Shown: positions 40,436 to 60,861 of the stretch, piece after piece
Numbering within the stretch: position 1 is the stretch's first letter
Layout: every line of letters begins with the position of its first letter
DNA from: Klenkia sp. PcliD-1-E
Lineage (GTDB): Bacteria; Actinomycetota; Actinomycetes; Mycobacteriales; Geodermatophilaceae
Direction: 5' to 3'
Length of the DNA stretch: 64,000 nt
NCBI RefSeq assembly: GCF_024124375.1
Contig: NZ_JAMXRZ010000001.1
Location: forward strand, 62,001 to 126,000
The notes under the pieces: model-generated
The model's input: only the letters and a program-made list of their open reading frames with translations
The model's database searches: none
Told to the model about the DNA's origin: nothing
Position numbers and translations under genes: made by a program

Positions 40436-41596
40436 CTAGCGCCTGGGCCCGGGACGGTTCGTCGGCCTGCTTCGGCGAGTGGTTGGAGGCGGGGGCGGCG
40501 GTGGCTTGATCCGGGCCTCGAGGGCGCGAGCGATCTCGGCGTCGCGGTCGTCGTTGGCGTGCTGGTAGATCAGCGCGGCGTCCGGGCTGGCATGGCCGAG
40601 CCGGCGCATCAGCTCCTTCGTGCTCGCCCCGGCCGCGGCGGCGAGGGTGGCGCCGGTGTGCCGCAGCTCGTGCAGCCGGACCGGTCCGAGCCCGACGGCG
40701 TCGGCGGCGCGGCGGAAGGTCTTGCCGAAGTTGGCCACGCTGAGGAACCCGCCGCTGCGGGTGCCGAACACGAGCGCGTCCGGGGTGTCCGGCACGTAGC
40801 GGTCCATGTGCTTGAGCAGAGCGATGCGGACGCTGGTCGGCAGGGCGACGGTGCGGTGCCCGGCCTCGGTCTTGGGCTCACCGACGACCCAGCGGCCGTC
40901 GTAGTAGCGCACGGCCCGTTCGATCCGTAGCCGTTCCCCTCCGTCCAGGACGTCAGACCGGCGCAGGGCGGCTGCTTCGCCGAACCGGAGCCCGGCGAAG
41001 GTGAGGACCAGGACGAGCGCGCTGTACCGGTCGGTGCGGGTGGACCGGCCGAGGTGGTCGGCGACGGCGGTGGCCTCGGCGGCGGTCAGCGCGCGGGACG
41101 GGCGTGCTGCCTTGGGGGTGGACGCGCCGCGCAGCTTGCACGGGTTGGCCGGGATGGCGTCGTCGGCGACGGCGACACCCAGGACGGCGCGCAGGAGGCG
41201 GTAGCTCTGGGCGAGCACGGCCGGCCCCGTGGTGGCGGCCGCGGTGGTGTGCCAGCTGCGCACCATCGCCGGGGTGACATCACCGACCTCGACGCCTGTC
41301 CAGCGGTCGGCGAGGTGCAACCGCCACAGGTTGGCGTAGAGCACCCGGGTCGAGTCGCGCAGGTCCTGACGCTTCAGATAGTCGGCGGCAAACTCATCGA
41401 CCGTGCGGCGAGCGCCTTCGGGTGCCCGCCACATGCGGCGGACGGCGTCGGTCTGCTGGGTGGCCAGCCAGACCCGGGCGTCGGCTTTGGTGGGGAACGT
41501 GGCCGACCGGCGCTTGCCGTCCGGCCCGGTGCAGCGGGCACGCCACTTGCCCGACTCCATCTTGTCGATGGCGCCGAAAGACGCGCGGGAGGCCAT
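40436..41596 (-). CDS. int: Tyrosine-type site-specific integrase
   Basis: Integrase of 386 residues, normal for actinobacterial element integrases. N-terminal SAM-like arm-binding and core-binding domains (residues 1-160; KMESGKWRARCTGPDGKRR is an AP2-like DNA-binding start). The catalytic domain has all residues: Arg204 (AGLRFGEAA), Lys242 (EPKTEAGHRT), His309 and Arg312 (HELRHTG), His335 (LGHAS), and nucleophile Tyr344 (IYQHAN). The Pro-rich tail is unusual but harmless. Lying beside the tRNA fragment, it should recombine this tRNA-Gly site. Confidence 0.95.
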   Translation of the reverse strand: MASRASFGAIDKMESGKWRARCTGPDGKRRSATFPTKADARVWLATQQTDAVRRMWRAPEGARRTVDEFAADYLKRQDLRDSTRVLYANLWRLHLADRWTGVEVGDVTPAMVRSWHTTAAATTGPAVLAQSYRLLRAVLGVAVADDAIPANPCKLRGASTPKAARPSRALTAAEATAVADHLGRSTRTDRYSALVLVLTFAGLRFGEAAALRRSDVLDGGERLRIERAVRYYDGRWVVGEPKTEAGHRTVALPTSVRIALLKHMDRYVPDTPDALVFGTRSGGFLSVANFGKTFRRAADAVGLGPVRLHELRHTGATLAAAAGASTKELMRRLGHASPDAALIYQHANDDRDAEIARALEARIKPPPPPPPTTRRSRPTNRPGPRR

Positions 41597-41926: not shown

Positions 41927-44900
41927 TCACCACAGGAGCGCCGAGCGGGTTGCCATCGCTGGCCGACGTTCCTGGGCCGGGGGGTGCGTAGATGACTCGA
42001 CGACCCCAGCACCGGTCCGAACGGTCGGGTCAACGCTGCATGCGATCCCGGCAGGGTGGTGCCTGTCGCTGGCGGTGAACGTCTCGGCAAGGGCGATGTC
42101 GGGCGCGACTCCGGTCCGTGCGACTACGTGGGTGAGCAGGGCCGGCCATCGGTGCACGGGCAGGGCCGCGATGACCTCGGCGGACCGCCGCACCGCCGCG
42201 ACCTGCCCTTCGACGGTGGCCAGCCGGTCCTGCAGCTCGTCGATGCGGCGGTCGACGACCACGTCGGCCAGGGGGGTCGGTGACCGCAACGCTCGGAGGA
42301 GTGCGTCTGCCCCAGCGACCTGCAGGAACGAGGCTGGGTCGTCGCCGTCGGGCAGTGCAAGCGAGCCGGCGTCCTTGGCGCCGATGGTCCAATAGATCCG
42401 CTCGGCCGACAGTCGCCCAGCCGCGTCGGAGTCCATCGCCACGATCAACCCCGCCTGCTTGCTGCCGGTTGCGGCCTGCAGGAGGTCAGCCTGCACGTCG
42501 GTGAAGGCGGTTCCGAGTGGGGCGATGCCGACGTATTGGTGCGCGCCGGCGAGGGTGACGGCGAGGGCGTCGATGGGTCCTTCGACCAGGACGGGGGTCG
42601 TGCCTGTCGTCAGGTGGGCGCGTGCTTCGTGCAGTCCGAAGAGGTGGTGCCCCTTGGTGAAGGCGACGGTGGCGGGGGTGTTCAGGTACTTCGGCGCAGC
42701 CGGATGCGGGTGCCGGTCCCGGTCGGGGTTGCGTCGCCCGATCCAGCCGACGATGCCGTCGTCGTCCTGGATGGCGAACATGACCCGGTCGCGGAAGCGG
42801 TCGATGAGCCGGCCCGACGTTGATCGGGTCGCGAGCCCGGCGGCGACCAGCTCCTCGTCGGTGGCGCCTGTGTCGCGGAGATGCTCGACCAGGGTCGTCC
42901 AACCGTTTGGGGCGTAGCCGACCGCATGTTCGGTCGTGCCGAGCGGATCTGTTCCCAGTCGTGTGACGAGGTAGTTCTGCGCCCAGGAGTCCGCGTAGGC
43001 GCTGTCGTAGAAGTCGGCTGCGAAGTCGTTTAACTCGAGAACTCGACCGCGCAGAGTTCTCTCAACGGTGCGATTTCGGGCAGGGGGCGGTGTGGGGTTG
43101 TTGATGGGCGTTTCGATGGCGTCGAGCGGCTGGCCGGTTGGTTCGGTGGCGTGGACGGGGAGGTGGTCGACGAGGCGCCACCACAGCGCGGCCGCGGGCT
43201 GCTCGTCGGGCAGTGGGCGGACGGTCAGCGCTGCCAGGAGCGATCGGCCGTTGGGGTCGCTGATCCGGGCGGTGGTGAGCTTGTCCAGGAGTACGGGCCA
43301 GTAGGGGTCGTCGATGACGTCGGGAGCGGCGCCGCGAAGTGCTGCGGCCCATCGGACCGCGTCGGTGGTGCTGGCGCCCACGCAGCGGCGCACACGATCG
43401 TCGAGGTGTTGCTGGTGGGCGGCGTCGGCGGCTGTCGTGCTCGGCCCGCCGGTCGGTCGTGGGTCGGAGGGTTCGGTGCTGGTGGCCGCTCGCCAGACCG
43501 CGAGGTCGCGTAAGAGCGCGGGGTCTCCTGACAGGGGCCGGGCCCACATGGGTGCTGATGTCGGGGTCCAGCTGGTGGCGCGGTCGGCGACGGCCTGGGC
43601 GTGGTCCCGCACTCTGTTGGCGCGACGGGTCAGGTAGCTGCCCCAGACCGGATCCTCGCCGAGCACCTGCGGGGTCGCTGGGAGCCAGGGCAGTGGCGGG
43701 GGTGGCCCGTCGGGGCCGGGTGGGCCGATGCGCCAGTCGAGGACTGCGGCGGCATCGCGCGCGGTGTCCAGACCGCGCGGGTCGTCGGTGGCTTCCTGCA
43801 GGATCTGTGCGGGGTCGTAGCCGGCCGCGGCATGCAGCGCCAGGTCTGCCCGCAGCGCGGGGTAGGCCGGTGCGTCGGTCAGGCCCGCGACGGTGGTCTC
43901 GGCCGCACGGTCGATGGCAGCCATGCCGTCCGAGCCGACCTGCTCCTCTGCGGCGGTGGCTAGAGCGTGGAGGTAGCGGCCAACCTCGGCCGCCAGCTGG
44001 CGCGCGGGGTCGTCCTGGTCGGCGGCGATGCTGGTGGCCGATCTCGGTGTGTCGTCGCGGGTGAGGATGCGCTGCAGGACCTCGATGGCGGTGGGGGGCA
44101 GGACGCCGTCGCGGGTGATGGCGGTGTGGGGGTCGCCGTCGCCGGTCACGGTGACGTAGGCGTGGTTGCTGTGCCGTCCGCGGGTGAGTGCGACGTAGAG
44201 CTGCTGCCGGGATTCGGTGCCGGTGACGACGGTGTAGCTGGTGTCGGCGGTGACGCCTTGGGCGCTGTGGACGGTGGTGGCGTAGCCGAGGGTGACGTGG
44301 TCACGGATGTAGTCGGCGGGGAGGGTGACCAGGGCGGCGGTGGCGGTGTGGACGACGTCGACCGCGCCAGATGGTCGGACGGCGGTGATGGTCCAGCGGT
44401 CGCCGTTGGTGACCCATCCGGTGGTCCCGTTGGGCAGGGTGCGGTCGTTGCGGCGGCTGATGACGACGTCGCCGGCCGAGGCGGCCGTCCCGTCGGCGAG
44501 TGCGACCTCCCGGCGGGCGGGGCCTTCGCGGGCGAGGCGGTCGGTCCGGGCGCGCAAGTTGAGCTGGGTGACCAGGTCGCGGGTGGGGGCGAGCATCAGG
44601 GGATCGCGTCCGGCGGCCCGGTCGGCAGACCAGGCGGTGTAGGTCTGGTCGAGGCAGGAGGACAAGTCACCGACCTGCAGGCGGCCTCGGTCGGCGTAGT
44701 ACGCGAGGGCCGCCGGGTCGCCATCCCGGAGGGCAAGGGAGGTCGCGCCCTCGACGGTGTTGGGTACGCCGGTGTCGGGGTGGGTGAACCGGACGACCTC
44801 GTCGAGGCGGGCCGCGCCGTGGGAGCGGGCGAGGTCGGCGAGCAGGCCGCCGGCGCCGACCGGGCCCAGCTGTTGGTCGTCGCCGATGAGCCGAACCGAC

Positions 44901-46993
44901 CCACCCGCGGCGAGGACGGTGGTGACGACGCAGGCGAGGTCCTGGGTGGTGGCGGCCCCGGCTTCATCGATCACGACCAGGGAGGTGGGGCCGACGGTGG
45001 TGAGCCAATCGGGTACGTCGACGCCGGTCTGGGTGGCATGCACGAACTTGGCGACGGTGTCGGTGCTGTCGCCGAGCTGCTCCCGCAGCACCGAGCTGGC
45101 CGCGGCGGAGGGGGCCAGGCCGATAACGGTGCCGCTACCGGCTCGCCAGGCGGCGGCGAGGGTGCGCAGGGCGAAGGTCTTACCCGTGCCCGCCGGCGCA
45201 ACCGCCACCTGCAGTCGCGCCCCGGAGCAGGCCAGGGCGCGGACGAAAGTTGCCTGGCCGGAGTTCAGCGGCCGCCCAGACTCCTCGGCAGAACGCAGGG
45301 CGTCATCGACCGCCTCACTCGGGGTGACGTGGCCGTCGAAGCGTGCGGCTGCGTCCAGGACCGCCCGTTCTGCGTCTAGCACCTCATCGGAGGTGTAGTG
45401 CGCGGACCCGACGACCTCGTACATCGAGGCGCCGTCGACCCGTCGCAGCACAGCGGGTTCGCCGTCCTCGGCCAGGGGGGTGAGCCGGCGGGAAGTGGGG
45501 GGTGACAGAGCGCGGGTGACGATGTCCTCGACCACCCGGTCGAGGTCGCAGGTGCGCACGCCGGCGTGGCGGGCGCGGCGTTCGGCCTCGGCACGCAGGT
45601 GGGTCTCCTGCCAGGTGGCGCGGGTGGTGCCGACGCGGGCGACGGCGGCGGCCGCCATCGTGTCAAGCCAGGCAGGGGTGACGTCTGGTCCCGGCGGCCG
45701 GCGACCGGGGTGCAGGGCACGGTTGATAAAGCGGTCGAGCTGCTGCTCACCGCCGAGCGCGGCGAGGGCTTCGGCTCGCCATGCCGCGCGTTGCTCGGCG
45801 TGGGTGCGGGGTTCGTGCTTGGCCTGGCGGGTCTCCAGGTTGGCCTGCTGGGCCAGCTGGATCGCCTCCCGAGTGGTGGGCGGTCGGCCGTGGTCGGCCT
45901 GGAAGGTCGTGGCCAGCGCCGCGCGGCGGGTGTCGATGGCGGCACGGCGGGAGGACCACAGGCGGGGCAGGGGCCCGTCGATGCCGACGATCTCCCGCAC
46001 CGCCCGTTTGCCGGTTTCGCTGCCGGGACGTTCGGCGAACCGGACACCGAGGCGTTCGACGAGGAAGACCTCGATGCGGGTGTTGTACCGCTCGGACGCG
46101 GCGACGACGTTGGCGTACAGAGGACGTCCGTCCAGGGCCAGCCAGCGCCCGTCCACGGTCTGGACCTTGTTGCTGATGGCGACGTGGGTGTGCAGGTCGG
46201 GATCGCCGGCCCGGGAGTCCCGATGGGTGAACGCTGCGGCCAGCAGGCCGTGGACGTCGATCTGGGCGACGCCGTGGCGGCCGGTACGGCTGAAGGTGGC
46301 ATGGTCCTCGAGCCAGCCCAGGACGTCGGCGACGGCGTCGGCGTGGGCCCGCTCGATCACCTCCGCGACCTCTCGCGGCGCGATGGCCCACAGCGTCGAC
46401 ACGCTCTTGACGGGGCTGAACGTGAGGTCGTAGCCGGCCACGGCGGTGGTCTGCTGCCGGGAGATCCGCGCGAGGTGCCCGGACAGCTCGCGGGGGTTAA
46501 GCGGGTCGCGGCCGAACTGCTCACGGAACATGCCTACGGCGATCTCGGTCCGAATGCGGGCGCGATCCTCGGCGGGTACCCCGGTCGTCCCGGCTTCGCC
46601 GTGGGCAGCGTTGAACTCCCGGTAGGCGATGGCGCTGCGGCGACGGAATTCCCCGACCGCCGCGAACACCGGGTATGGCGCCCCCAGCCGCGATGCCCGG
46701 TCGACCGCTGCGGCGACGGCTCCCGCGGCGGCCGCGTCCTGCTCCACCTGCACACGGTTGGGGTGACGTCCCTCGCCGAACAGCGCCAGCATCTGCGCCT
46801 CGGCGACATCGGGCCCGATGACGTCCCCGGTCAGGCCGTCGAGCCCGCGCCCCATCCACCGGCCCGGTGATTCTCCCCGCGCCATGTAGTAAGCCGACAG
46901 CCCGCCGGGGGCAGGCGCGGTGGTGTCCTGCGCGGCTACCTGACGGCTGAGATAGGTGTAGCCGTCCCCGGCGGTCAGCTTGTGCACCGTCAT
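41927..46993 (-). CDS. MobF-type relaxase fused to helicase and DnaG-like primase core
   Basis: A 1,688-residue multidomain transfer protein. N-terminal TrwC/TraA-type relaxase (1-300): Tyr in GDGYTYLSRQ, YYMARGESPGRW, and the metal-binding HUH triad in AAFTHRDSRAGDPDLHTHV (His257, His268, His270). A RecD-like helicase follows (550-960) with Walker A APAGTGKTFAL near 601, VVIDEAGAATTQDL and a C-terminal TVHSAQG/ALTRGRHSNH motif. The C-terminal third (1380-1600) is a DnaG-type core: FRDRVMFAIQDDDGIVGWIGR, the TOPRIM Glu in LVEGPIDAL and AMDSDAAG. No DnaG zinc finger is seen. The ATG at 46993 is my start; a GTG one codon earlier is possible. Confidence 0.9.
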   Translation of the reverse strand: MTVHKLTAGDGYTYLSRQVAAQDTTAPAPGGLSAYYMARGESPGRWMGRGLDGLTGDVIGPDVAEAQMLALFGEGRHPNRVQVEQDAAAAGAVAAAVDRASRLGAPYPVFAAVGEFRRRSAIAYREFNAAHGEAGTTGVPAEDRARIRTEIAVGMFREQFGRDPLNPRELSGHLARISRQQTTAVAGYDLTFSPVKSVSTLWAIAPREVAEVIERAHADAVADVLGWLEDHATFSRTGRHGVAQIDVHGLLAAAFTHRDSRAGDPDLHTHVAISNKVQTVDGRWLALDGRPLYANVVAASERYNTRIEVFLVERLGVRFAERPGSETGKRAVREIVGIDGPLPRLWSSRRAAIDTRRAALATTFQADHGRPPTTREAIQLAQQANLETRQAKHEPRTHAEQRAAWRAEALAALGGEQQLDRFINRALHPGRRPPGPDVTPAWLDTMAAAAVARVGTTRATWQETHLRAEAERRARHAGVRTCDLDRVVEDIVTRALSPPTSRRLTPLAEDGEPAVLRRVDGASMYEVVGSAHYTSDEVLDAERAVLDAAARFDGHVTPSEAVDDALRSAEESGRPLNSGQATFVRALACSGARLQVAVAPAGTGKTFALRTLAAAWRAGSGTVIGLAPSAAASSVLREQLGDSTDTVAKFVHATQTGVDVPDWLTTVGPTSLVVIDEAGAATTQDLACVVTTVLAAGGSVRLIGDDQQLGPVGAGGLLADLARSHGAARLDEVVRFTHPDTGVPNTVEGATSLALRDGDPAALAYYADRGRLQVGDLSSCLDQTYTAWSADRAAGRDPLMLAPTRDLVTQLNLRARTDRLAREGPARREVALADGTAASAGDVVISRRNDRTLPNGTTGWVTNGDRWTITAVRPSGAVDVVHTATAALVTLPADYIRDHVTLGYATTVHSAQGVTADTSYTVVTGTESRQQLYVALTRGRHSNHAYVTVTGDGDPHTAITRDGVLPPTAIEVLQRILTRDDTPRSATSIAADQDDPARQLAAEVGRYLHALATAAEEQVGSDGMAAIDRAAETTVAGLTDAPAYPALRADLALHAAAGYDPAQILQEATDDPRGLDTARDAAAVLDWRIGPPGPDGPPPPLPWLPATPQVLGEDPVWGSYLTRRANRVRDHAQAVADRATSWTPTSAPMWARPLSGDPALLRDLAVWRAATSTEPSDPRPTGGPSTTAADAAHQQHLDDRVRRCVGASTTDAVRWAAALRGAAPDVIDDPYWPVLLDKLTTARISDPNGRSLLAALTVRPLPDEQPAAALWWRLVDHLPVHATEPTGQPLDAIETPINNPTPPPARNRTVERTLRGRVLELNDFAADFYDSAYADSWAQNYLVTRLGTDPLGTTEHAVGYAPNGWTTLVEHLRDTGATDEELVAAGLATRSTSGRLIDRFRDRVMFAIQDDDGIVGWIGRRNPDRDRHPHPAAPKYLNTPATVAFTKGHHLFGLHEARAHLTTGTTPVLVEGPIDALAVTLAGAHQYVGIAPLGTAFTDVQADLLQAATGSKQAGLIVAMDSDAAGRLSAERIYWTIGAKDAGSLALPDGDDPASFLQVAGADALLRALRSPTPLADVVVDRRIDELQDRLATVEGQVAAVRRSAEVIAALPVHRWPALLTHVVARTGVAPDIALAETFTASDRHHPAGIACSVDPTVRTGAGVVESSTHPPAQERRPAMATRSALLW

Positions 46994-47118
46994 CACACGG
47001 AAGCCAGGGAACTCCGGGCACGTCGCGCTGTCACCCGGGGAGCAAGAGGTGTGTCGGCGATGGTTCGGGGTGTTGGCAGGTCCGCCGGCGGCCCGGACCG
47101 GGGCGAAGCGGCGGGTCG

Positions 47119-47209
47119 TTGTCCACAGGCCGGCACGGCGCCGGGGCGGATCCACAGATTGAGAGAGAAAGCCCTGCTCAGAGGCGGGTCGGCAAGATAA
47201 TTGATCTTG
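47119..47209. promoter_or_regulatory. DnaA-box-like repeats and CAAGAT palindrome between relaxase and ParB genes
   Basis: TTGTCCACA (47119-47127) matches the actinobacterial DnaA box, and TCCACAG recurs at 47151-47157. Between them is a GC-rich stem CGGCGCCG. Downstream, CAAGAT-N5-ATCTTG (47193-47209) is a perfect palindrome overlapping a GATAAT -10-like hexamer before the ParB gene. The 251-bp gap between divergent transfer and partition genes is a natural place for an origin of transfer or of replication. Confidence 0.5.
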
Positions 47210-47244
47210 TCCGATCACGCCGCCGGTTCACTGAGGAGCCCGCC

Positions 47245-48432
47245 ATGACCACCACTGCCACGGCCAACCCGACCGCGACGCCGTCCACCCGCGAGCTGGT
47301 CGAGGTCGACCCGGCCACTTTGCTCGTCGATCTGAACGTCCGCCATGACACCCGCCTGGACGCCGACTTCTGCGCCAGCATCGCCGAGCACGGCGTCCTG
47401 GTCCCCGTCGTCGCCGTCCGCACCGCCGACGGGGCACTGCGGGTCCGGTACGGCCACCGCCGCACCCTGGCCGCCGTCCAGACCGGCCGGCACACCGTGC
47501 CGGTCGTCATCGCCGCCGACGAGGCAACCGACGACGCGGCGACGGTGGAGCGGCTGGTCACGCAGTGGGCGGAGAACGAGCACCGCACCGGGCTGACCAC
47601 GGCCGAGCGCGCCGACGTCATCGGTCAGCTGTCGGCTTTCGGTGTCACCCCCACCCAGATCGCTCGCCGCACCCGCGCCACCAAGACCGAGGTCACCGCA
47701 GCCCTGGCCGTGCACGGGTCCGAGCTGGCCCGTGCCGCCTCGTCCCGATACGAGTTCCTGGACCTCAATCAGGCCGCCGTCGTGGCCGAGTTCGACACCG
47801 ACCCCGAAGCGGTCAAGGCCCTGGTCGTGGGCGCCCGGGAGGGCCGGTTCGACCACGTCGCGCAGCGGCTGCGCAACGACCGCCGCGACGCCGCCGCCCG
47901 CGCCCAGGTCGCCGACGGGCTGCGGGAGCAGGGGGTGCGGGTCATCGACAAGCCCGCCGGGGACGACCCGGCCCGGGACCTGCACCGCCTGGCCGACGCC
48001 GACGGCACCCGGCTGACCGCCGCCACCCATCAGGGCTGCGAGGGCCATGCGGCCTACGTCGGGCAGGAGCACGGGTGGCGGTTCGTCGACGCCGACGGCC
48101 AGCCCCTCCCCGACACCGGCCAGGACGACGACACCGACGACCAGGACGATGACGAGGACCTGGCCGACGAGGAAGACGACCTCGACACCGGGGGAGGGGC
48201 CCGTCGGGAGTGGGTCAGCTGGGCCGCGCCCCGCTGGGTGTGCACCGACCCCGCAGCGCACGGCCACCTCGACGCCTGGGCCAACCACGGCGGCAGCGGT
48301 AGCGGCCGCGTTCCGGCGGCCGAGCTGAGCGACGACGAGCGGGACGCCGCCCGCGCCGCCCGCCGTGACGTCATCGACTCCAACAAGACCTTCCACGTTC
48401 GCATTGGGCAAGCCTCGAGCTCGCCGAGGTAG
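47245..48432 (+). pseudogene. ParB-like partition protein, N-terminal fragment
   Basis: ParB N-terminal nuclease-like domain (residues 15-110: VEVDPATLLVDLNVRHD, SIAEHGVLVPVVAV, RYGHRRTLAAV, WAENEHRTGLTTAERADVI) and a KorB/ParB helix-turn-helix (TPTQIARRTRATKTEVTAAL). An acidic low-complexity stretch follows (residues 290-315). GAGGAG lies 7 bases before the ATG. True similarity ends at VIDSNK (base 48387); the last 15 codons come from inserted DNA. The missing C-terminal part continues in frame at 50983. The fragment might still be translated as a 395-residue protein. Confidence 0.82.
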
Positions 48433-48493
48433 AACGGTCTTGTCGAACTTGGCCCGTGCTGACAGAAGCGCCCTGCACCGCAACGATGACCCG

Positions 48494-49342
48494 ATGAGCA
48501 TGGAAGGGCTGCACGCAGTGCCCACTCCCACCGTCGGGGGCTGGATCGAGGAGCGGCTGCGCGGCTTCGGCAGCACCGTCGCGAGCAACGTCCCGACCGG
48601 GTTCGGGGCCTACGCCCGCGTTCTGCACTCCGTCGACCTCCATGCACCTCCCGCGGCTTCTGGCAACGACGCGGAGGATCAGGGCGCGACCGTGACGTGG
48701 GCCCAGGTGTGCGAACGGACCGGTCGCACTCCGCACGCCCTGATGCAGTGGCGCTCCATCACCTCTCCGAATCCTGAGCGAGATCTGTCGCTGTCCTCCG
48801 AGGGGCTGTGGGACGAGGTGACAGTGCAGGAGGGGACGCTGCAGCCAGCGCCGCTGGCCCGGCTACTGGATGTCTTGGCCCCCTTCACCGGGGATCAGGA
48901 GTGCTATCACGCGCTGTGGGAGGGCTACGGCTGGCTCCATGGGTCGAGCTCCCTGATGGTGTTCACCCAGGCCGACAGCCGCGACGGTTCCCCATCGCTT
49001 CCACCCCGGCGGGCTGAGGTGCCGCGGCAGCTGCAGCAGGCGCTGGCCGCGCCGCGCCTGTCGCTGCCCGGGCGGAACTACTTGCTCTTCGCCGGGCCGC
49101 TGCGCGGGGCACTGGCCATGGGCCATCAGGTCACCGACGACTGGGTCATCCCGCAGTCGCCGAACCTACTGTGGCCAGCGGACCGCTCCTGGTGTGTATC
49201 CAGCGAGATCGACTTCGACTCCACATTGGTCGGCGGCTCCGCCGAGCTCATCGAGGTCGTGCTGGCCGCACCCGGGCTGGAGGCGTGGGCGGTGGGCGAG
49301 GACGACGACCTGAGCTTGTTCGCCGACACGCTCAACAGGTAA
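48494..49342 (+). CDS. Conserved hypothetical protein inside the insertion
   Basis: A 282-residue protein. The pattern GGWIEERL, GFGAYARVLHSVDL, TWAQVCERTGRTPHALMQW, a central CYHALWEGYGW, RNYLLFAGPL, and SPNLLWPADRSWCVSSEIDFDSTLVGGS matches a common actinobacterial hypothetical family that I recognise by pattern but cannot name. The start at ATG 48494 avoids the leader shared with ParB; no good ribosome site is visible. Its last codons overlap the transposase stop by 11 bases tail to tail, so the IS may have replaced its extreme C-terminus. Confidence 0.72.
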   Translation: MSMEGLHAVPTPTVGGWIEERLRGFGSTVASNVPTGFGAYARVLHSVDLHAPPAASGNDAEDQGATVTWAQVCERTGRTPHALMQWRSITSPNPERDLSLSSEGLWDEVTVQEGTLQPAPLARLLDVLAPFTGDQECYHALWEGYGWLHGSSSLMVFTQADSRDGSPSLPPRRAEVPRQLQQALAAPRLSLPGRNYLLFAGPLRGALAMGHQVTDDWVIPQSPNLLWPADRSWCVSSEIDFDSTLVGGSAELIEVVLAAPGLEAWAVGEDDDLSLFADTLNR

Positions 49343-50690
49343 GCCTCGTTCGGGCTGGGGGCGTCGGAGGCGCGGGTTGTGGCGGCGGTTGTGCTGGGAA
49401 TGCCGCCTTCTCGTCGAACAGGGTCTTGGCCTGTAGGCAGTGGTGGAGCATGCCGAGGAACCGGTTGTAGAGGTTGCGCTGGGCAGCACTGTGTCGGTCG
49501 CCGATGGCTCTCCTGCGGTCATAGTGCGACCGCGCTCCTGGTGAGGTGCGCAGGGAGGACAGGGTCCAGGTGTAGCCGGCGTCGGCCAGGCGGTTGTTCT
49601 TGATGCGTCGTCGGCTGACGTAGGAGCTGCGGCCGCTGGCTCGGGTAATCGGTGCGCTTCCGGCGTAGGCCTTGAGCGCCCGGGCGTCGGCGAAGCGGGT
49701 GCGGTCGTCACCGATCTCGCCGAGGATGCGTGCACCGGAGATCTCGGCCAGACCGGGGAAGCTGGTGAGGATCGCAGCGTCCGGGTGCCGGTTGAAGGCC
49801 TTTGTGAGTGCGTCGGCCAGGTCATTGCATCCGGCCGTCGCGGCGGCCAGCTGCCCCAGGATCACCACGCACTGCTTACCCATCGCCTCCTCAACAGGTG
49901 CCGGTTGGCGCAGCTGAGGAGCCCTGAGCAGGCTGTGTAGGCGTTCGACTTCGTGCTCGATGCGGCGTTGTCTGCCCCCGCGGCGAAGAGCGGCCCGCAG
50001 CTGTGCCCTTGTGAGCTGCGCGGCGAGGGTCGGGGTTGGTGCGATAGCCAGGACGGCTTGTGCGTCGGCACCACTCAGTCCGCCGGCCACCTTGTCGTAG
50101 GCGCGCACGAAGGCCGGGAAGTACTGCAGCAGGTGGGCGCGCAGCTTGTTCTGCACCTGCAGCCGGTCCCACACCGCGTCTTGTTGTGCCCGGGCGAGCA
50201 CCCGGATGGCCTGGACCAGGACGGAGTCATCAGCAAGGGGCCGGTGCTCGTGGGCGTCGGTGCGCAGGATGTTGGCCAGGGTGCGCGCGTCGAAGGCGTC
50301 GGACTTGCGGCCGGCCACCGAGCTGCGTTCGCGGTAGCGGGCCACTGCCATGGGGTTGATCGCGTAGACCGGTCTGCCGGCCATCCGCAGGTTGGCCACG
50401 ACCAGACCGCGGCTGGTCTCGATCGCGACCGGGATCGGTGCACTGGTGGGATCTTGATGTTCGGCGAGCAGGTTCAGCAGGGTGGCGAACCCGGCCGCGT
50501 CGTCATCGATGCGGTGGCTGACCAGCAGGGTGCCGCGGTGATCGACGATCGCGATGTCGTGGTGGTCGTCGGCCCAGTCGATGCCGCAGAACGAGGTCGG
50601 CTCTGCGGCGCCGTCTGGCTGGGCAGGTTGGAGTTGCTTGGATGTCGTCGGCGAGTCCTGGTAGTCGATCAACGGCACGTTCCTCTCCAC
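49332..50690 (-). CDS. IS110-family transposase
   Basis: DEDD-type recombinase of 452 residues. N-terminal RuvC-like domain with Asp in CGIDWADDHHD, Glu in AIETSRGL and the two Asp in GRKSDAFDARTLA; C-terminal Tnp_20 domain with FPGLAEISGARILGEIGD, the serine region AYAGSAPITRASGRS and NRLADAGYTWTLSSL. IS110 recombinases are guided by a bridge RNA from the element's own non-coding end. A GTG 4 codons later (50678) is an alternative start. Length is usual (about 400-460), so the gene looks intact. Confidence 0.92.
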   Translation of the reverse strand: MERNVPLIDYQDSPTTSKQLQPAQPDGAAEPTSFCGIDWADDHHDIAIVDHRGTLLVSHRIDDDAAGFATLLNLLAEHQDPTSAPIPVAIETSRGLVVANLRMAGRPVYAINPMAVARYRERSSVAGRKSDAFDARTLANILRTDAHEHRPLADDSVLVQAIRVLARAQQDAVWDRLQVQNKLRAHLLQYFPAFVRAYDKVAGGLSGADAQAVLAIAPTPTLAAQLTRAQLRAALRRGGRQRRIEHEVERLHSLLRAPQLRQPAPVEEAMGKQCVVILGQLAAATAGCNDLADALTKAFNRHPDAAILTSFPGLAEISGARILGEIGDDRTRFADARALKAYAGSAPITRASGRSSYVSRRRIKNNRLADAGYTWTLSSLRTSPGARSHYDRRRAIGDRHSAAQRNLYNRFLGMLHHCLQAKTLFDEKAAFPAQPPPQPAPPTPPARTRLTC

Positions 50691-50982
50691 GGATGCTGCG
50701 GGTTGATGGGTGCTGGTTGATGCCGCGGGGGACCACGCGCGCGCCCTAATGGCGAGGGCTCTGGGCCCGACCTTCCACTAGCCGTTCGTGGCCCAGCTAC
50801 CTGCACCTGTCGCTGTCACAGTCGAAGAGCTCGGGCTCAGGCGATGAGGGCGGTGTCGAGATGCAGAGGGCTCAACCACGAACGTTGTAGCGCAGCGCCG
50901 GCGCACACACCGGTCTTGTTGGAGGTCTGGTCGACTCGTGCGTGGACAAGGTGTCGCGGCGCCAGCGCTGCAGACCCATTAG
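50691..50982 (-). ncRNA. Non-coding end of the IS110 element, candidate bridge RNA region
   Basis: A 292-base stretch upstream of the transposase with no supported gene. In IS110-group elements the bridge RNA comes from this position. Secondary-structure potential is visible, for example the stem GCCCT/AGGGC at 50743-50759. At 50912-50924 it contains the reverse complement of the 13 bases CTCCAACAAGACC that span the ParB insertion junction (48378-48390). The assignment is by family analogy; the RNA ends cannot be placed. Confidence 0.4.
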
Positions 50983-51408
50983 GCCTGGGGGAGCGCCGAG
51001 ACCGTGCGCCGGGACTGGCTGCGTGCCCTGGCCACCCGCAAGACCGCCCCCAAGGGCACCGCCACCTTCGTCGCCGCCGCGCTCGCCGTCGACGCCGACC
51101 TGCTCGCCGACGTCGGCGGCAACCGCGTCGCCGCCGCCCTGCTCGACGTCGCCCCCGGCAGCTACGGTCGGTCCACCGCGCTGGCCGAGCTCGTGGCGAA
51201 GGCCAGCGACGCGCGGGCGCTGCTGCTGACCCTGGTGCTGGTGCTGGCCGCCTACGAGGCCCGCACCGACCGCAACGACTGGCGCCAGCTACGCCCCTCC
51301 ACTGGCCGGAACCTGACCCACCTGCAGGCCCTGGGCTACACGCTGGCCGACGTCGAGCGCCGCGCCTGCGGTCTGAACCCCCTGCCCACCACCGAGCAGA
51401 TCGACTGA
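50983..51408 (+). pseudogene. ParB-like partition protein, C-terminal fragment
   Basis: Begins in mid-protein with AWGSAETVRRDWLRALATRKTAPKG, which continues directly from VIDSNK at the end of the fragment at 47245-48432. The remainder is helical (FVAAALAVDADLLADVGG, YGRSTALAELV, TGRNLTHLQALGYTLADVERRACG), typical of the C-terminal region of actinobacterial-element ParB proteins. Without the insertion the two pieces make a protein of about 522 residues. An internal GTG at 51004 could give a 134-residue product, but no ribosome site supports it. Confidence 0.8.
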
Positions 51409-52971: not shown

Positions 52972-53045
52972 AGCACCCACTCCGCGGGTAGGTCGTTCCA
53001 TGATGGCTGCCTTTCATCTGGCGCACGCGCCAGGCGGATCGGGGG

Positions 53046-53853
53046 TCAGACGAATGAGGTGCCGTAGCCGGCGGCAACCACCCAGCCGCGGAACCACTGC
53101 ATGAGGTCGGTCCAGAGCCCGGTCGCGAGCAGGATGCCGACCAGAATGAGCAGGACACCTCCGGTCCGCGTCACGGTGCGGGCATGCTGCCGCAACCACG
53201 TCGTGCTCCGTACGGCCCAGCCGGCCCCGAGGGCCACCAGCAGGAACGGGACGCCCAGCCCGATGCAGTAGGCCAGGGCCAGGAGGGCTCCCCGGGTTGC
53301 GGTGGCCTCGGTGTAGGAGAGAGCGAGGACCGCGGACAGCGTGGGCCCGATGCAGGGTGTCCAGCCGAGGCCGAACACGATGCCGAGCAGCGGCGCCCCG
53401 GCCAGTCCGGCGGACGGGCGCCAGCCGAGCCGACCGGTGCGCTGGAGGGGGGGGCAACCAGCCCAGGAAGGCCAACCCGAGGACGATCGTCACCACCCCC
53501 ATGACGCGGGTGATGGTGTCGGCGTGCACCAGCAGCATGCGACCAAGACCGCCGAAGGCTGCGCCCACCAGGATGAACACGAGGGTGAACCCGCCGACGA
53601 ACAGGGTCGCCCCGGCCAGCAGTCGACGACGGGACGTCTGCACGGGTGCCGTGCTGACTGCGGCACCGTCCGGCGCGGCCCCGGACGTGCGTTGTGAGAA
53701 ACCGCCGGCCAACCCGGTGATGAAGGAGAGGTAACCGGGGACGAGCGGTAAGACGCAGGGGGACGCGAAGCCGATCAGACCGGCCAGCGCGGCGATGGCT
53801 GCGGCGAGAAGGAACGGGCCGGTGGACACCAGGTCGCCGAATGCCTCACCCAT
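53046..53853 (-). pseudogene. ccdA: CcdA-type thiol-disulfide transporter, frame broken in a C8 run
   Basis: Six-helix protein that passes electrons from cytoplasmic thioredoxin to TlpA. The first Cys is in GFASPCVLPLVPGYLSF and the second in [15 protein letters not shown]. The frame from 53853 is open to about 53450, then the CcdA sequence continues one frame over. The switch falls on eight consecutive C of the minus strand (G8 at 53447-53454). Removing one C restores [18 protein letters not shown] and a 268-residue protein of normal length. Either it is a real frameshift, a slippage-controlled switch, or an assembly error. Confidence 0.85.
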
Positions 53854-53874
53854 GGATGCGGTGCACCGGCGTGT

Positions 53875-54534
53875 TCAGCCGAGCTGGGTGCGCCAGAACA
53901 CCCAGAACCGCTGCAGGACCAGGGCGGCGATGACCAAGTACCACACCACGACCAGCACCGGTGCGCGCCCGACGACGGTGGTCACCAGTCGGCGCCCACC
54001 CGGTGGGACGCGGTGGGCGACTGCCCGCAGGTTGCGGGTCGTGACGGCCACGAAGAGCGGGATCACCACCACCCAGACGACCAGGCAATACGGACACAGT
54101 GCCCCGATCCGGTACAGGCTGGAGAAGATCAACCAGTGCACGAACCCGATGGCGAAAACCACGCCGATCTGGAGTCCGGCCCAGTACCACCCGGGCAACT
54201 GCGCACCTGACAGGAGCACGACCCCGGTCACCGTCACCACGGTGAACCCGACTACGCCGATCAACGGGTTGGGGAACCCGAACACCGACGCCTGGGCGCT
54301 GGTCATCACCGATCCGCAGCTGACCACTGGATTGAGGTCGCAGCTGAGCGCGGTGGTGGGCTCGACGAGCAACCGGACGCGTTCCACGATCAGCGTGAAC
54401 GCCGCCCACAGGCCCACAGCCCCGCCGATGGCGAGCCCCAGTCCGAGCCGGTCGACCCGGCGACGCCGGGCAGTCGGGTGATCGAAGACGCTTGCGCCGA
54501 GCGGCTCATGCATCGTGGAAGGGGGCGTGCTCAC
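53875..54534 (-). CDS. Vitamin K epoxide reductase (VKOR) family protein
   Basis: Quinone-linked membrane protein of 219 residues that re-oxidises DsbA-like proteins, taking the place of DsbB. Loop cysteines are in LSCDLNPVVSCGSVM, with the conserved Ser, and the quinone-site pair is CPYC in GALCPYCLVVW. About five hydrophobic segments; a sixth near the C-terminus (LVVVWYLVIAALVLQRFW) is typical of actinobacterial VKORs. The GTG start overlaps the DsbA-like gene's stop (GTGA). The DsbA-VKOR pairing strongly supports an oxidative folding role. Confidence 0.93.
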   Translation of the reverse strand: MSTPPSTMHEPLGASVFDHPTARRRRVDRLGLGLAIGGAVGLWAAFTLIVERVRLLVEPTTALSCDLNPVVSCGSVMTSAQASVFGFPNPLIGVVGFTVVTVTGVVLLSGAQLPGWYWAGLQIGVVFAIGFVHWLIFSSLYRIGALCPYCLVVWVVVIPLFVAVTTRNLRAVAHRVPPGGRRLVTTVVGRAPVLVVVWYLVIAALVLQRFWVFWRTQLG

Positions 54535-55253
54535 TGCTGGTCGGCCAGCGCGGCGTCCAGGGCGTCGGCCAGGTCCTGATAGCTCTGCGGGTCCTGCCTG
54601 ATCCCGTCGATGAAGAAGGTGGGCGTGCCCTGGACCCCCAGGGCGATGCCGTCGGCACGGTCGCTGAGCACTCGCTCCAGGGTGGCGGGATCGGCGACGG
54701 CGGCGTCGTAGGCCGCCATGTCCAGGCCCAGGTCCTGGGCGTAGCCGCGGAACCGATCAGCCTCTGACGTCTGCCCCTCGCCCCACTCGGCCTGGGTCTC
54801 GTACATCCGGTTGTACATCTGCTCGAGGTTGTCCTGCTGCGCGGCAGCTTCGACGGCCACCGCGGCGTTCTCGGCATTGAAGTGGCCCGTGCCGGGGAAG
54901 TACCGGACGACGAAGCTGACGCGACCGGCGTAGTCCTCGCGCAGCTGCTCGACGAAGGGGTAGGCCGCTCCGCACGCCTCGCACTCGAAGTCCAGGAATT
55001 CTACGAAGGTGACGGCGCCCTCGTCGCCGGCCTGCAGTACGCGGCTGTCGGCACGGACGACCTCGGCGCTGCCGGCGCTAGTGGCGTCCTCCCCCCGGGC
55101 GCTGAGGGCCACGGCAACGCCCACGACGACGGCGAACACCACCACCACGACTGCGATGACCGTCCAGTTGGACCAGACCGGCCCCTTCGACGCCGTGGAA
55201 CTCACCACTCGACGCGCGGAGGACTGGGCGGCGGTGGGCTTGTTGGTGGGCAC
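54531..55253 (-). CDS. DsbA-like thioredoxin-fold disulfide oxidoreductase
   Basis: Membrane-anchored protein of 240 residues. One N-terminal membrane helix (about 30-50, WTVIAVVVVVFAVVVGVAV), then a thioredoxin_4/DsbA domain: FVEFLDFECEACGAAYPF with the CEAC active site near residue 93, FRGYAQDLGLDM in the helical insert, and the cis-Pro loop GVQGTPTFFIDG. Exported proteins are its substrates and VKOR re-oxidises it. It starts at a GTG and heads the leftward redox operon, divergent from the ArsR gene. Confidence 0.92.
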   Translation of the reverse strand: MPTNKPTAAQSSARRVVSSTASKGPVWSNWTVIAVVVVVFAVVVGVAVALSARGEDATSAGSAEVVRADSRVLQAGDEGAVTFVEFLDFECEACGAAYPFVEQLREDYAGRVSFVVRYFPGTGHFNAENAAVAVEAAAQQDNLEQMYNRMYETQAEWGEGQTSEADRFRGYAQDLGLDMAAYDAAVADPATLERVLSDRADGIALGVQGTPTFFIDGIRQDPQSYQDLADALDAALADQQ

Positions 55254-55320
55254 GGTTCCTCCGAGCGCAGGGAACGGGAGGTCCTATCGAGGATAGGACA
55301 CCGCCACCTAACGTGACAAC

Positions 55321-55353
55321 CTACGTTGGTACGTCGTAGCGTTTGAGATTCAA
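55321..55353. promoter_or_regulatory. Inverted repeats upstream of the ArsR-metal ATPase operon
   Basis: CTACG...CGTAG (55321-55339) and TTGA-GAT-TCAA (55343-55353) lie 26-58 bases before the ArsR start in the 125-bp gap shared with the divergent dsbA operon. Imperfect palindromes like these are usual ArsR-family operators. If the sensor binds here it could link the redox operon to metals. Confidence 0.5.
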
Positions 55354-55378
55354 CTGCCGATCCACCCAAGGAGATCTG

Positions 55379-55741
55379 GTGCCCGTCGAATCCTGCGACC
55401 TGCTGTGCGTGGACCTCCCGCACGCGGAGGAGGTCCGAGCGGGGCTGCCCGGCATGGACGACCTCGAGCTCCCCGCTGCACGGGCCAAAGCCCTGTCCGA
55501 CCCCCGCCGGCTGCGCGTCGCGCTGGCCTTGCAGGCGGGAGACGAGATGTGCGTCTGCGACCTCGCATGGGTGTGCGAGGACAGTCGCAACCTGGTGTCC
55601 CACCACGTCCGCGTGCTGCGGTCGACGGGCCTGGCCCGATCACGGCGCGAGGGAAAGCTGGTCATGTACGAGCTCACTGCCATGGGTCAGCTACTGCTCG
55701 ATGCCGTGACCGATGGGCGCCCCGCCGCCGTGGAGGCCTGA
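55379..55741 (+). CDS. ArsR-family metal-sensing repressor (CadC/CmtR type)
   Basis: Winged-helix metal sensor of 120 residues. The DNA-binding region covers about residues 35-95 (ARAKALSDPRRLRVALAL, CEDSRNLVSHHVRVLRSTGL). Metal ligands of the CadC/alpha-3N type are likely: the motif EMCVCDLAW and the N-terminal cysteines in ESCDLLCVDLPH. It probably releases DNA when Cd, Pb or Zn binds. AAGGAG precedes the GTG at 55379. It lies one base before the metal ATPase gene. Confidence 0.92.
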   Translation: MPVESCDLLCVDLPHAEEVRAGLPGMDDLELPAARAKALSDPRRLRVALALQAGDEMCVCDLAWVCEDSRNLVSHHVRVLRSTGLARSRREGKLVMYELTAMGQLLLDAVTDGRPAAVEA

Positions 55742-55742
55742 C

Positions 55743-57953
55743 GTGTCCGATCTGTGCTGCGGATCCGGTGCCGATCCGACCTCACCCCGTCGTGCTGTCA
55801 CCGTGACTCCCGCTGTGCCGATGATCTCCGCCGGGGGTGCCTGCGGTGACGGTTGCTCCTGCTGCGGCCCCGATCCGGCTGCCCCGCCCGGACCGCAGGT
55901 GTCGACCGCTCCGGCTGGAGGAGACGGGTGCGGCGATCCCACCTGCAATGCTCCTGCCTCGACTGCCGAGGAACCACGTTCGCTGTGGCGGTCCAGTTCC
56001 GCCCGTCTGGCACTGCTGGCCGGGGTGCTCTGGTTGGCCAGCGAGGGCTCGGATCGATTCACGTCCCTGCCCACTCCAGCAGTCGTCGTGCTGGCGCTCG
56101 GCGCGGTGGCTGCCGGGGGGGCCACCTTCGTCCCCGGGACGCTGCGTGCGCTGCGCCGCGGAAAGGTCGGCGTCGGCACCCTAATGACCATTGCGGTCAT
56201 CGGGGCGATCGCGCTGGGTGCCCACAGCGAGGCCGGCATGCTGGCGTTCCTGTTCTCCCTCGCCGAGGCGCTGGAGGACGACGCGGTCGCGCGGACACGC
56301 CGCGGGCTGCGGGCCCTGTTGGAGCTGGTGCCCCCCAGGGCGACGGTGCTGCGGCCAGGCCCGGGCGGTGACCGTCAGGAGGTCGTGGTCGACCCCGCCG
56401 AGCTGCAGGCCGGGGACCTGCTCGTCGTCAAACCCGGGGAGCGGCTGGCCACCGACGGGGTCATCGAGTCCGGACGCTCATCGCTGGACACCTCGGCAGT
56501 GACGGGCGAGTCCGTGCCCATCGAGGTCGGGCCCGGTGAGGAAGTCTTCGCTGCCTCAGTCAACGGCACCGGTGTGCTCACCGTCACCGTCACCGCAGCT
56601 GTCCGGGACAACTCCCTGGCCCGGATCGTGCACGTCGTCGAGGAAGCACAGGAGCGCAAGGGATCTGCCCAACGGCTGGCCCAGCGCATCGCACAGCCGT
56701 TGGTGCCGGCGATCCTGGTCATCGCCGGCCTGATGGCAGTGGTGGGGTCGCTGCTGGGTGACCCGGCCGTGTGGATCGAGCGGGCCCTCGTGGTGCTGGT
56801 GGCTGCCTCGCCGTGCGCCTTCGCCATCTCCGTGCCGGTCACGGTGGTCGCTGCCGTGGGGGCCGCGACCCGGCAGGGGGTGCTGGTCAAGGGAGGGGCG
56901 GCCCTGGAGACCCTCGGCGCGGTCGACGTCGTAGCCCTGGACAAGACGGGCACCCTGACCCGCAACCAGCCCGCGGTCGTCGCGACCCTCCTCGCCGGCG
57001 ACACCGACAACGCCGACGTCCTGCGCATCGCGACGGCGTTGGAGGCGCGCAGCGAGCACCCCCTGGCTGCTGCCGTCCTGCGCAGCTTCACCGAACGCAA
57101 CCCCGGCAGCCCGGTCCCGACCGCACGCGACGTACAGGCGGTCGTAGGCAAGGGACTCGAGGGACTGGTCGACGGACAGCCTTACCGACTGGGCAAGCCT
57201 GGATTCGTCGAGGTCGGGGACCTCGCAGACGAAGTCGCCGCCCACCAGGATGCAGGGGCGACCGTCGTCCTGGTCGAGGGCGAAGGCGGCTTGATCGGTG
57301 GTCTCGCCATCCGCGACGAGTTGCGCCCCGAGGCGGCCGAGGCCGTCGCGGCGCTGGCCGCCATGGGCATAGACACGGCCATGCTGACCGGTGACAACGC
57401 CCGGACCGCGACCCACCTGGCCGCACGCGCCGGTATCAGCGAGGTGCACGCAGAACTCCGCCCCGAGGACAAGGCCGGCCTGGTCGAGCGGCTGGCTGCA
57501 CCGGCCGGCGGGCGTCGTCGCCGGCGCCGGGTGGCGATGGTCGGGGACGGCATCAACGACGCCCCGGCCCTGGCAACGGCCGACGTCGGCATCGCGATGG
57601 GCGCCATGGGCACCGACGTGGCCATCGAGACCGCCGACGTGGCGCTGATGGGGGAGGACCTGCGCGCTCTGCCACGATCCCTGGCCCATGCGCGACGGTC
57701 TCGGGCCATCATGCTGCAGAGCCTGGCCCTGTCCTCGGCCATCCTGCTCATCCTCATCCCGCTAGCCGCGTTCGGCGTGCTCGGTCTCGCCGCGGTCATC
57801 GTGACCCACGAGGTCGCCGAGGTCGTCGTGATCGCCAACGGAGCGCGTGCGGGGCGCGTGCGCCGCCGCCCTGCGACAGCGGGTCGGCGAACCGGCGGCG
57901 GCGTCCCGACCGGGGAGCTGGAGCAGCGGGACGGGATCGCCATCCTCCACTGA
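55743..57953 (+). CDS. Heavy-metal-translocating P1B-type ATPase
   Basis: Metal efflux pump of 736 residues. Cys-rich N-terminus (residues 1-75: LCCGSG, GACGDGCSCCGPD, GDGCGDPTC) instead of a standard HMA domain. Actuator TGES (LDTSAVTGESVP), phosphorylation site DKTGTLT, nucleotide-binding HP motif (SEHPLAAAV), and MVGDGINDAPAL hinge are all present. The membrane metal site is SPC (VAASPCAFAIS) rather than CPC, and the last segment reads THEVAEVVVIANG. Cd/Zn/Pb/Co are candidates; SPC favours the cobalt-type group. It follows the ArsR gene by one base. Confidence 0.93.
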   Translation: MSDLCCGSGADPTSPRRAVTVTPAVPMISAGGACGDGCSCCGPDPAAPPGPQVSTAPAGGDGCGDPTCNAPASTAEEPRSLWRSSSARLALLAGVLWLASEGSDRFTSLPTPAVVVLALGAVAAGGATFVPGTLRALRRGKVGVGTLMTIAVIGAIALGAHSEAGMLAFLFSLAEALEDDAVARTRRGLRALLELVPPRATVLRPGPGGDRQEVVVDPAELQAGDLLVVKPGERLATDGVIESGRSSLDTSAVTGESVPIEVGPGEEVFAASVNGTGVLTVTVTAAVRDNSLARIVHVVEEAQERKGSAQRLAQRIAQPLVPAILVIAGLMAVVGSLLGDPAVWIERALVVLVAASPCAFAISVPVTVVAAVGAATRQGVLVKGGAALETLGAVDVVALDKTGTLTRNQPAVVATLLAGDTDNADVLRIATALEARSEHPLAAAVLRSFTERNPGSPVPTARDVQAVVGKGLEGLVDGQPYRLGKPGFVEVGDLADEVAAHQDAGATVVLVEGEGGLIGGLAIRDELRPEAAEAVAALAAMGIDTAMLTGDNARTATHLAARAGISEVHAELRPEDKAGLVERLAAPAGGRRRRRRVAMVGDGINDAPALATADVGIAMGAMGTDVAIETADVALMGEDLRALPRSLAHARRSRAIMLQSLALSSAILLILIPLAAFGVLGLAAVIVTHEVAEVVVIANGARAGRVRRRPATAGRRTGGGVPTGELEQRDGIAILH

Positions 57954-57972
57954 CCGCAGCTCCCCTCAAATC

Positions 57973-57993
57973 GCTACTATGACTTGTAGTAGC
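57973..57993. promoter_or_regulatory. GCTACTA-N7-TAGTAGC inverted repeat upstream of resB
   Basis: The 7-bp arms 57973-57979 and 57987-57993 are perfect, and the sequence TACTACAAGTCATAGTA on the minus strand resembles BlaI/CopY-type operators. It lies 71-91 bases before the ResB start. No BlaI-like gene is in this window. Confidence 0.5.
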
Positions 57994-58063
57994 AATGCTG
58001 CGTCGACGGAGGCGGCTGATCCCGCGCACTGCTCCGGGGCTGTAACGAAGGAGACCGGTCGGC

Positions 58064-59674: not shown

Positions 59675-59719
59675 TGGGCAGCGCGAGTCCGCGCCGGCCG
59701 GTGCGGCCAGCCTCAGCCC

Positions 59720-60661: not shown

Positions 60662-60731
60662 CGTGATGCTCCATCGGTGTGTGGGGGGCGGTCGAGCTCA
60701 GGCCCGGTGCCGGTTGCGCCCACGGTAGCGT

Positions 60732-60753
60732 CATATGCACTGTCTTGCATGTG
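60732..60753. promoter_or_regulatory. CATATGCA-N6-TGCATGTG operator-like site upstream of the CDF gene
   Basis: The arms CATATGCA (60732-60739) and TGCATGTG (60746-60753) pair at seven of eight bases. The site starts 70 bases upstream of the CDF start codon. It resembles ArsR/SmtB-type sites, but the binding protein is unknown. Confidence 0.55.
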
Positions 60754-60861
60754 GTAGGCGGAGCGCAGAACGGTGACAGCCGACGAGGGTGCCGGCTGAT
60801 GTCTGCGCCCTCTCGGTCACCGCCTGATCCGGAGGTCACCGGTCCGGGTAGTCCGGGCTCC

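What the first reader, a model, noticed from the sequence alone, without database searches (positions are those of the whole stretch)
47245..51408. ParB-like gene split exactly in two by a 2.6-kb insertion
The N-terminal piece ends at VIDSNK and the C-terminal piece starts AWGSAETVRRDWLRALATRK in the same frame; joining bases 48387 and 50983 gives a normal full-length protein of about 522 residues. The element may thus have lost partition or regulation, or use the truncated protein.
Basis: seen in the sequence. Interest (0 to 1): 0.65.

Follow-up and report, generated by a model that had tools for sequence, protein, structure and literature searches.

The report
RNA-guided IS110 element splitting ParB-like gene
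A ParB-like gene of a transferable DNA element is cut in two by a jumping gene that appears to carry its own guide RNA for that spot, and a distant relative has jumped into the same spot of a quite different plasmid, which suggests an RNA-guided parasite of mobile DNA.

Summary
In detail: a 522-codon ParB-like frame is interrupted between codons 381 (K) and 382 (A) by 2,595 bp; six relatives have it unbroken. The insert is one IS110-family element: transposase (49332-50690, -), a noncoding left end with bridge-RNA features, and a convergent passenger gene of unknown function (48494-49342, +). The junctions share a 2-bp core. The left end carries the complement of the right target (10 of 10 nt), a copy of the element's right tip beyond the passenger (10 nt) and the complement of its left tip (7 nt), so the passenger lies inside the mobile unit. 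The left-target guide fits this site poorly (5/9). The closest relative found (72% transposase, Curtobacterium plasmid pTCL) sits at the same NK|AW codons of a ParB-like protein 35-40% identical, with the same donor guide but other cargo. So a bridge-RNA-programmed lineage seems aimed at a conserved codon motif of ParB-like genes in MobF elements; Streptomyces relatives often hit transposase genes. 'Loss of partition' is unproven: no ParA was found near this gene in the window or six relatives. New variant of a known kind; mechanism inferred from sequence.

The parts
47245..48387 (+). N-terminal piece (381 aa) of the ParB-like protein; its ORF runs on to a stop at 48430-48432 with 14 element-encoded residues
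   Evidence: ParB_N E 3.7e-05 (below Pfam cut-off), NCBIfam parB_part E 5e-13 (below cut-off), PHROG 6218 ParB-like E 1e-45
48386..48387 (.). core dinucleotide AG (CT on transposase strand), right-end junction
   Evidence: sequence
48388..50980 (.). IS110-family element (2,593 bp plus one 2-bp core)
   Evidence: empty sites in six relatives; donor guides match both tips
48388..48396 (-). right tip (left donor half-site) GTGGAAGGT on the transposase strand
48494..49342 (+). passenger gene, 282 aa, actinobacterial family of unknown function, convergent with the transposase
   Evidence: no Pfam, NCBIfam, PADLOC, PHROG or PDB match
49332..50690 (-). IS110-family transposase/recombinase, 452 aa
   Evidence: Pfam DEDD_Tnp_IS110 E 1.9e-37 and Transposase_20 E 4e-14; NCBIfam IS110 RNA-guided transposase, 172 bits over cut-off 140
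50691..50980 (-). noncoding left end with predicted bridge RNA
   Evidence: guides, conserved covarying fold of its 3' part
50940..50946 (-). left target guide TCCACGC, placed by anatomy of relatives; with flanking bases 5 of 9 against this target
50915..50924 (-). right target guide CTCCAACAAG, complement of core plus 8 nt of the right target
50769..50778 (-). left donor guide GTGGAAGGTC, copy of the right tip plus C of the core
50746..50752 (-). right donor guide CCATTAG, complement of core plus left tip
50981..50982 (.). core dinucleotide AG, left-end junction
   Evidence: sequence
50983..51408 (+). C-terminal piece (141 aa) of the ParB-like protein
41927..47218 (-). MobF/TrwC relaxase with helicase and primase domains, divergent from the ParB-like gene 26 bp away; context
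40436..41596 (-). phage-type integrase of the host element; context

Best explanation
The split is one insertion of an IS110-family element carrying a passenger gene. Shown from sequence: precise insertion at a 2-bp core without further duplication, a transposase of the IS110 family, a noncoding left end whose guides match the target's right half and both element tips, and the same site used by the nearest relative in an unrelated plasmid. Inferred: the left end is transcribed as a bridge RNA; the transposase uses it to bring the circular element and the ParB-like gene's conserved NK|AW codons together and recombines them at CT; because these codons are conserved across the ParB-like family of actinobacterial MobF plasmids and integrative elements, one guide serves many host elements. 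The broken gene yields a 395-aa protein that keeps the ParB N-terminal and DNA-binding part and loses the last 141 residues. Excision by the same route should restore the gene exactly (inference from the family; not tested).
For: Empty sites in six relatives. Transposase family. Right target guide 10/10, left donor guide 10/10, right donor guide 7/7: present in 4, 0 and 21 of 5000 dinucleotide shuffles of the left end, all three together in 0 of 5000. The left donor guide matches the tip beyond the passenger, so the passenger is inside. pTCL: same codon boundary, core CT, donor block the same but for one base between the guides, left target guide 8/9, right target guide 5 nt plus core, different cargo; its ParB-like pieces are 40% (240 aa) and 35% (141 aa) identical to the window's, and relatives of both are empty, so two independent insertions. 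Target codons NKAW in 15 of 17 other family members compared. Bridge-RNA fold in 18 elements: 16 of 38 pairs with changes on both sides, 0 of 500 shuffles as high, 2-8 pairs when slid. Across 32 left ends, own left target matched at >=8/9 in 16 of 32 versus 19 of 814 mismatched pairs.
Against: The window's left target guide matches its own target at only 5 of 9; a blind scan of its left end does no better than chance (6/9 elsewhere). It fits other ParB-like genes better (8/9 in Pseudonocardia alni and Microbacterium plasmids). The right-guide test across relatives is weak (mean 6.5 versus 5.8 of 9; 11 of 32 with a located right end). Only two ParB-site copies are known: the window's, the only exact junction match in 112 family and 394 class genomes, and pTCL. 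No RNA or recombination was observed. Sequence match to the solved IS621 recombinase is weak (E 3e-4).
Confidence: 0.87

Rival explanations
1. An ordinary IS110-family insertion that landed in this gene without site programming; the match with pTCL is coincidence or shared history.
For: The left target guide fits poorly here, 5/9; a single copy in the genome.
Against: Exact same codon boundary in a ParB-like protein 35-40% identical, with empty-site relatives of each; 10-nt right-target guide found in 4 of 5000 shuffles.
Confidence: 0.06
2. Two nested events: a plain IS110 element and, separately, the passenger DNA, so that the passenger is not part of the mobile unit.
For: None of 94 other transposase loci carries the passenger nearby; nine cargo-free relatives measure 1,619-1,714 bp.
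Against: The left donor guide matches the tip beyond the passenger; pTCL has the same tip with other cargo.
Confidence: 0.06
3. The insertion is kept because it is a reversible switch of the ParB-like gene, or because the 395-aa truncated form is useful (compatible with the best explanation, added function).
For: IS110 elements are described as excising scarlessly (PMC11208160, passages); both known insertions leave the N-terminal part open with a short tail and stop.
Against: No excised copy or expression seen here; most relatives are simply empty.
Confidence: 0.12
4. Assembly artefact joining an IS to the gene.
For: The assembly is fragmented, 262 contigs.
Against: Guides and core fit both junctions; pTCL, a closed plasmid record, shows the same kind of junctions.
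Confidence: 0.02

Closest known systems
IS621 / bridge-RNA IS110 elements (PMC11208160, passages read)
   Same: DEDD recombinase, upstream noncoding RNA with target loop before donor loop, CT core, no other duplication
   Different: Actinobacterial lineage; larger element with passenger gene; target is a conserved coding motif of a ParB-like gene rather than REP sequences; weak sequence similarity to the solved IS621 recombinase
IS117-like elements of Streptomyces (annotation; mini-circle history recalled, a cited title seen)
   Same: 59% transposase identity to an annotated IS117-family protein
   Different: IS117's own ends and cargo were not compared here; relative to the Streptomyces relatives fetched, the donor guide changed from the ATCGGATG type to GTGGAAGGT, with other target and cargo
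IS1111/IS110 elements aimed at other mobile elements: IS4321/IS5075 at Tn21 ends, IS1111-attC at integron cassettes (titles seen in reference lists)
   Same: Family-level habit of targeting mobile DNA
   Different: Those target element ends or recombination sites; here a coding motif
Helper-embedded satellites in prophage late genes (PMC10111431, abstract and outline)
   Same: A mobile element lodged at a conserved point inside a gene of a larger mobile element
   Different: Integrase-based satellites, unrelated machinery

Membership tests
IS110 family | Recombinase with DEDD RuvC-like domain (PF01548) and Transposase_20 domain (PF02371) | tested here: met
IS110 family | Insertion at a short core, no longer target duplication | tested here: met
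   AG/CT core only; empty sites in relatives
IS110 family | Catalytic residues in place | tested here: inconclusive
   Motifs present but catalytic positions are recalled; only a weak alignment to IS621
Bridge-RNA IS110 group | Structured noncoding RNA upstream of the recombinase gene | tested here: met
   Covarying fold in 18 elements; transcription not tested
Bridge-RNA IS110 group | Donor guides match the two element tips | tested here: met
Bridge-RNA IS110 group | Target guides match both halves of the target | tested here: inconclusive
   Right half 10/10, left half 5/9 in the window; pTCL left 8/9, right 5 nt plus core
Bridge-RNA IS110 group | Circular intermediate and RNA-guided recombination | not testable with these tools
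   needs DNA and RNA from the strain
ParABS partition system | ParB-type N-terminal and DNA-binding region | tested here: inconclusive
   Matches ParB models, below the Pfam and NCBIfam cut-offs, clear match to PHROG ParB-like families
ParABS partition system | ParA gene next to parB | tested here: not met
   No match in the window or the stretches searched in six relatives; present in Prescottella
ParABS partition system | parS sites | not tested
   -

The most novel reading that the evidence does not exclude
A clade of actinobacterial IS110 elements is a family of RNA-guided hyperparasites: their bridge RNAs are tuned to short, slowly changing codon motifs in genes of other mobile elements (DAGK|K of DDE transposases, IS110 transposases, and here NK|AW of ParB-like genes in MobF conjugative elements). 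One sublineage re-aimed its guide at the conjugative-element gene, changed its donor guide and tip together, picked up exchangeable cargo, and rides from host to host; because excision restores the gene, it may act as a reversible switch on it.
Probability: 0.35. Interest if true: 0.72.

Novelty: new variant of a known kind. Interest (0 to 1): 0.52.

Why it matters
It gives a natural case in which a bridge RNA seems aimed at conserved codons of a transfer-linked gene, with a second independent insertion as evidence of targeting. It makes testable how guide RNAs track protein-level conservation, how donor guide and element tip change together, and how RNA-guided elements of this family acquire cargo, all relevant to programmable recombinases.

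Tried and rejected
First candidate for the left target guide (CCAGACCT, 7/8) was rejected because in relatives the guide lies before a small hairpin. A first automatic search for right ends gave many spurious hits; only the 11 of 32 that pass the stricter rule are used. Passenger: no match in Pfam, NCBIfam, PADLOC, PHROGs or a PDB profile search (two of 21 members gave TRI9 at E 0.067, taken as chance); single-sequence fold useless, pLDDT 32. Rfam: only a sub-threshold Ms_AS-4 hit antisense to the transposase. Viral contigs hold no relative of transposase or passenger and no donor block; four exact matches to the right-junction pattern there and the one-mismatch matches in five other family genomes hold neither transposase nor ParB and were dropped. 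No paper describing IS110 targeting of parB was found in searches (listings only; open-licence library). Rows dropped: the M. gilvum homologue (L185), because my motif filter found no frame; three of 35 left ends without a donor block; of the 80 public loci and the window and pTCL only those 35 with a CTAATGG-like left end were used.

Full report
Observation. The ParB-like frame 47245-48387 continues at 50983-51408; together they encode 522 residues. Six relatives, four of the same genus (G076, G077, G082, G083) and two of the same family (G020, G062), carry it in one piece at 61-77% identity, and all read SNKAW(G/A)SA at the break.

What the insert is. The transposase at 49332-50690 (-) has both IS110 domains and passes the NCBIfam cut-off for the IS110 RNA-guided transposase. 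Both junctions show AG (CT on the transposase strand) and the empty site has it once; bases on either side differ, so the core is exactly two bases and the element is 48388-50980. Between the transposase and the right tip lies a 282-aa gene on the other strand (48494-49342).

Guides. In the left end (50980 to 50691, transposase strand) I found CTCCAACAAG, the complement of core plus 8 nt of the right target; GTGGAAGGTC, equal to the element's right tip plus C of the core; and CCATTAG, the complement of core plus left tip. They occur in 4, 0 and 21 of 5000 dinucleotide shuffles, all three in none. Target part first, donor part second, is the order described for IS621 bridge RNA (PMC11208160, passages read). 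The left donor guide matches the tip beyond the passenger gene, so the passenger belongs to the unit.

The second insertion. The closest transposase in 72,556 plasmid records is on Curtobacterium sp. TC1 plasmid pTCL (72%). Its element (3,360 bp; cores at L161 3673-3674 and 7033-7034) also sits in a ParB-like gene, between the same N-K and A-W codons. The two ParB-like proteins are 40% (240 aa) and 35% (141 aa) identical in the matched parts. Homologues in other Curtobacterium plasmids and in the window's genus are uninterrupted, so two separate insertions are the simplest account. The donor block is the same apart from one base between the guides, while the cargo differs: three small ORFs without significant family matches. 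The two noncoding left ends share a predicted fold in which 9 of 72 pairs changed on both sides.

The site. In 15 of 17 other family members compared the motif is NKAW, and CCACGCCTTGTTG (transposase strand) is exact in 11 of 17 (one fetched homologue, L185, was dropped by my filter). pTCL's left target guide matches 8 of 9, its right guide five bases plus core. The window's right guide matches all 8 plus core, but its left guide only 5 of 9; it would fit the Pseudonocardia alni or Microbacterium gene at 8 of 9. So the window's guide was probably set on another host element, or the left half tolerates mismatches; this is the weakest point of the case.

The wider clade. Eighty public relatives (46-64%) were fetched; 35 left ends, window and pTCL included, start with CTAATGG or a near form. 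For the 32 of these with a donor block, the own left target is matched at 8 or 9 of 9 in 16 of 32, against 19 of 814 mismatched pairings; the 32 fall in 14 target groups, so they are not all independent. Right ends could be placed in 11 of 32; the nine other than window and pTCL measure 1,619-1,714 bp and have little room for cargo. The right-guide test on these 11 is weak (mean 6.5 versus 5.8 of 9). The 3' part of the RNA folds alike in 18 of the 32: 96% of cells paired, 16 of 38 pairs with changes on both sides, 0 of 500 shuffles as high, 2-8 pairs when slid. The window and pTCL differ in donor guide and tip together from the Streptomyces type.

What the clade hits. I tested left-flank frames of 19 of the 30 other elements with Pfam: 13 of 19 hit transposases (9 DDE_Tnp_1, 3 IS110 DEDD, 1 DUF4096), one an AAA_22 ATPase, one a zinc-binding dehydrogenase, four nothing. 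Four joined sites read DAGK|KIxGRKR. So the clade often lies in conserved parts of genes of other mobile elements; the parB sublineage applies this to a conjugative-element gene. This is a partial survey: 11 of 30 were not tested, and transposase genes are themselves abundant in these genomes.

Host element and consequences. The gene lies 26 bp from a divergent MobF/TrwC relaxase-primase, with an integrase beyond it; an integrated transferable element is likely (inference; its ends were not mapped, and no tRNA was found between 30000 and 64000). The relaxase is near the gene in four of six relatives, as a fragment in L195, and was not found in L193; no ParA match was found in any of the six or in the window. 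Apart from a distant (31%) match that I take for the chromosomal ParB, no intact second copy of this gene was found in the genome. The likely effect is loss of the last 141 residues; whether this affects partition, transfer or regulation is open.

Passenger. Relatives (29-49%) are found in 100 of 112 family genomes and 35 plasmid records, none with known function. None of the 94 other transposase loci carries it nearby (flanks of 1.5 to 3.5 kb where the contig allows). It is therefore probably captured cargo of this copy or its recent line.

Verdict. A new variant of a known kind: a cargo-bearing IS110 element of bridge-RNA type, aimed at a conserved motif of ParB-like genes. The mechanism is inferred from sequence; there are no RNA or recombination data.

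Noticed in passing
L068, L070, L072, L137 (Streptomyces loci): IS110 relatives sit at the same DAGK|KIxGRKR codons of DDE_Tnp_1 transposases, hinting at a general habit of targeting mobile-element genes.
   Followed up: partly
L069, L075, L121: IS110 relatives inserted in the coding sequence of other IS110 transposases after EAHP codons.
   Followed up: partly
window 49680-49761 (+): Sub-threshold Rfam match to the Ms_AS-4 sRNA, antisense to the IS110 transposase.
   Followed up: no
window 48494-49342: The passenger belongs to an unnamed actinobacterial protein family present in 100 of 112 genomes of the family and on mycobacterial and rhodococcal plasmids.
   Followed up: partly
L181 (Pseudonocardia plasmid pBCI1-1): ParB-like gene annotated as two overlapping CDS, probably a frameshift near the same region.
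   Followed up: no
window 53000-62300: Redox and metal genes downstream: DsbA-like, ArsR-type regulator, P-type ATPase, cation efflux, ResB and cytochrome c assembly.
   Followed up: no
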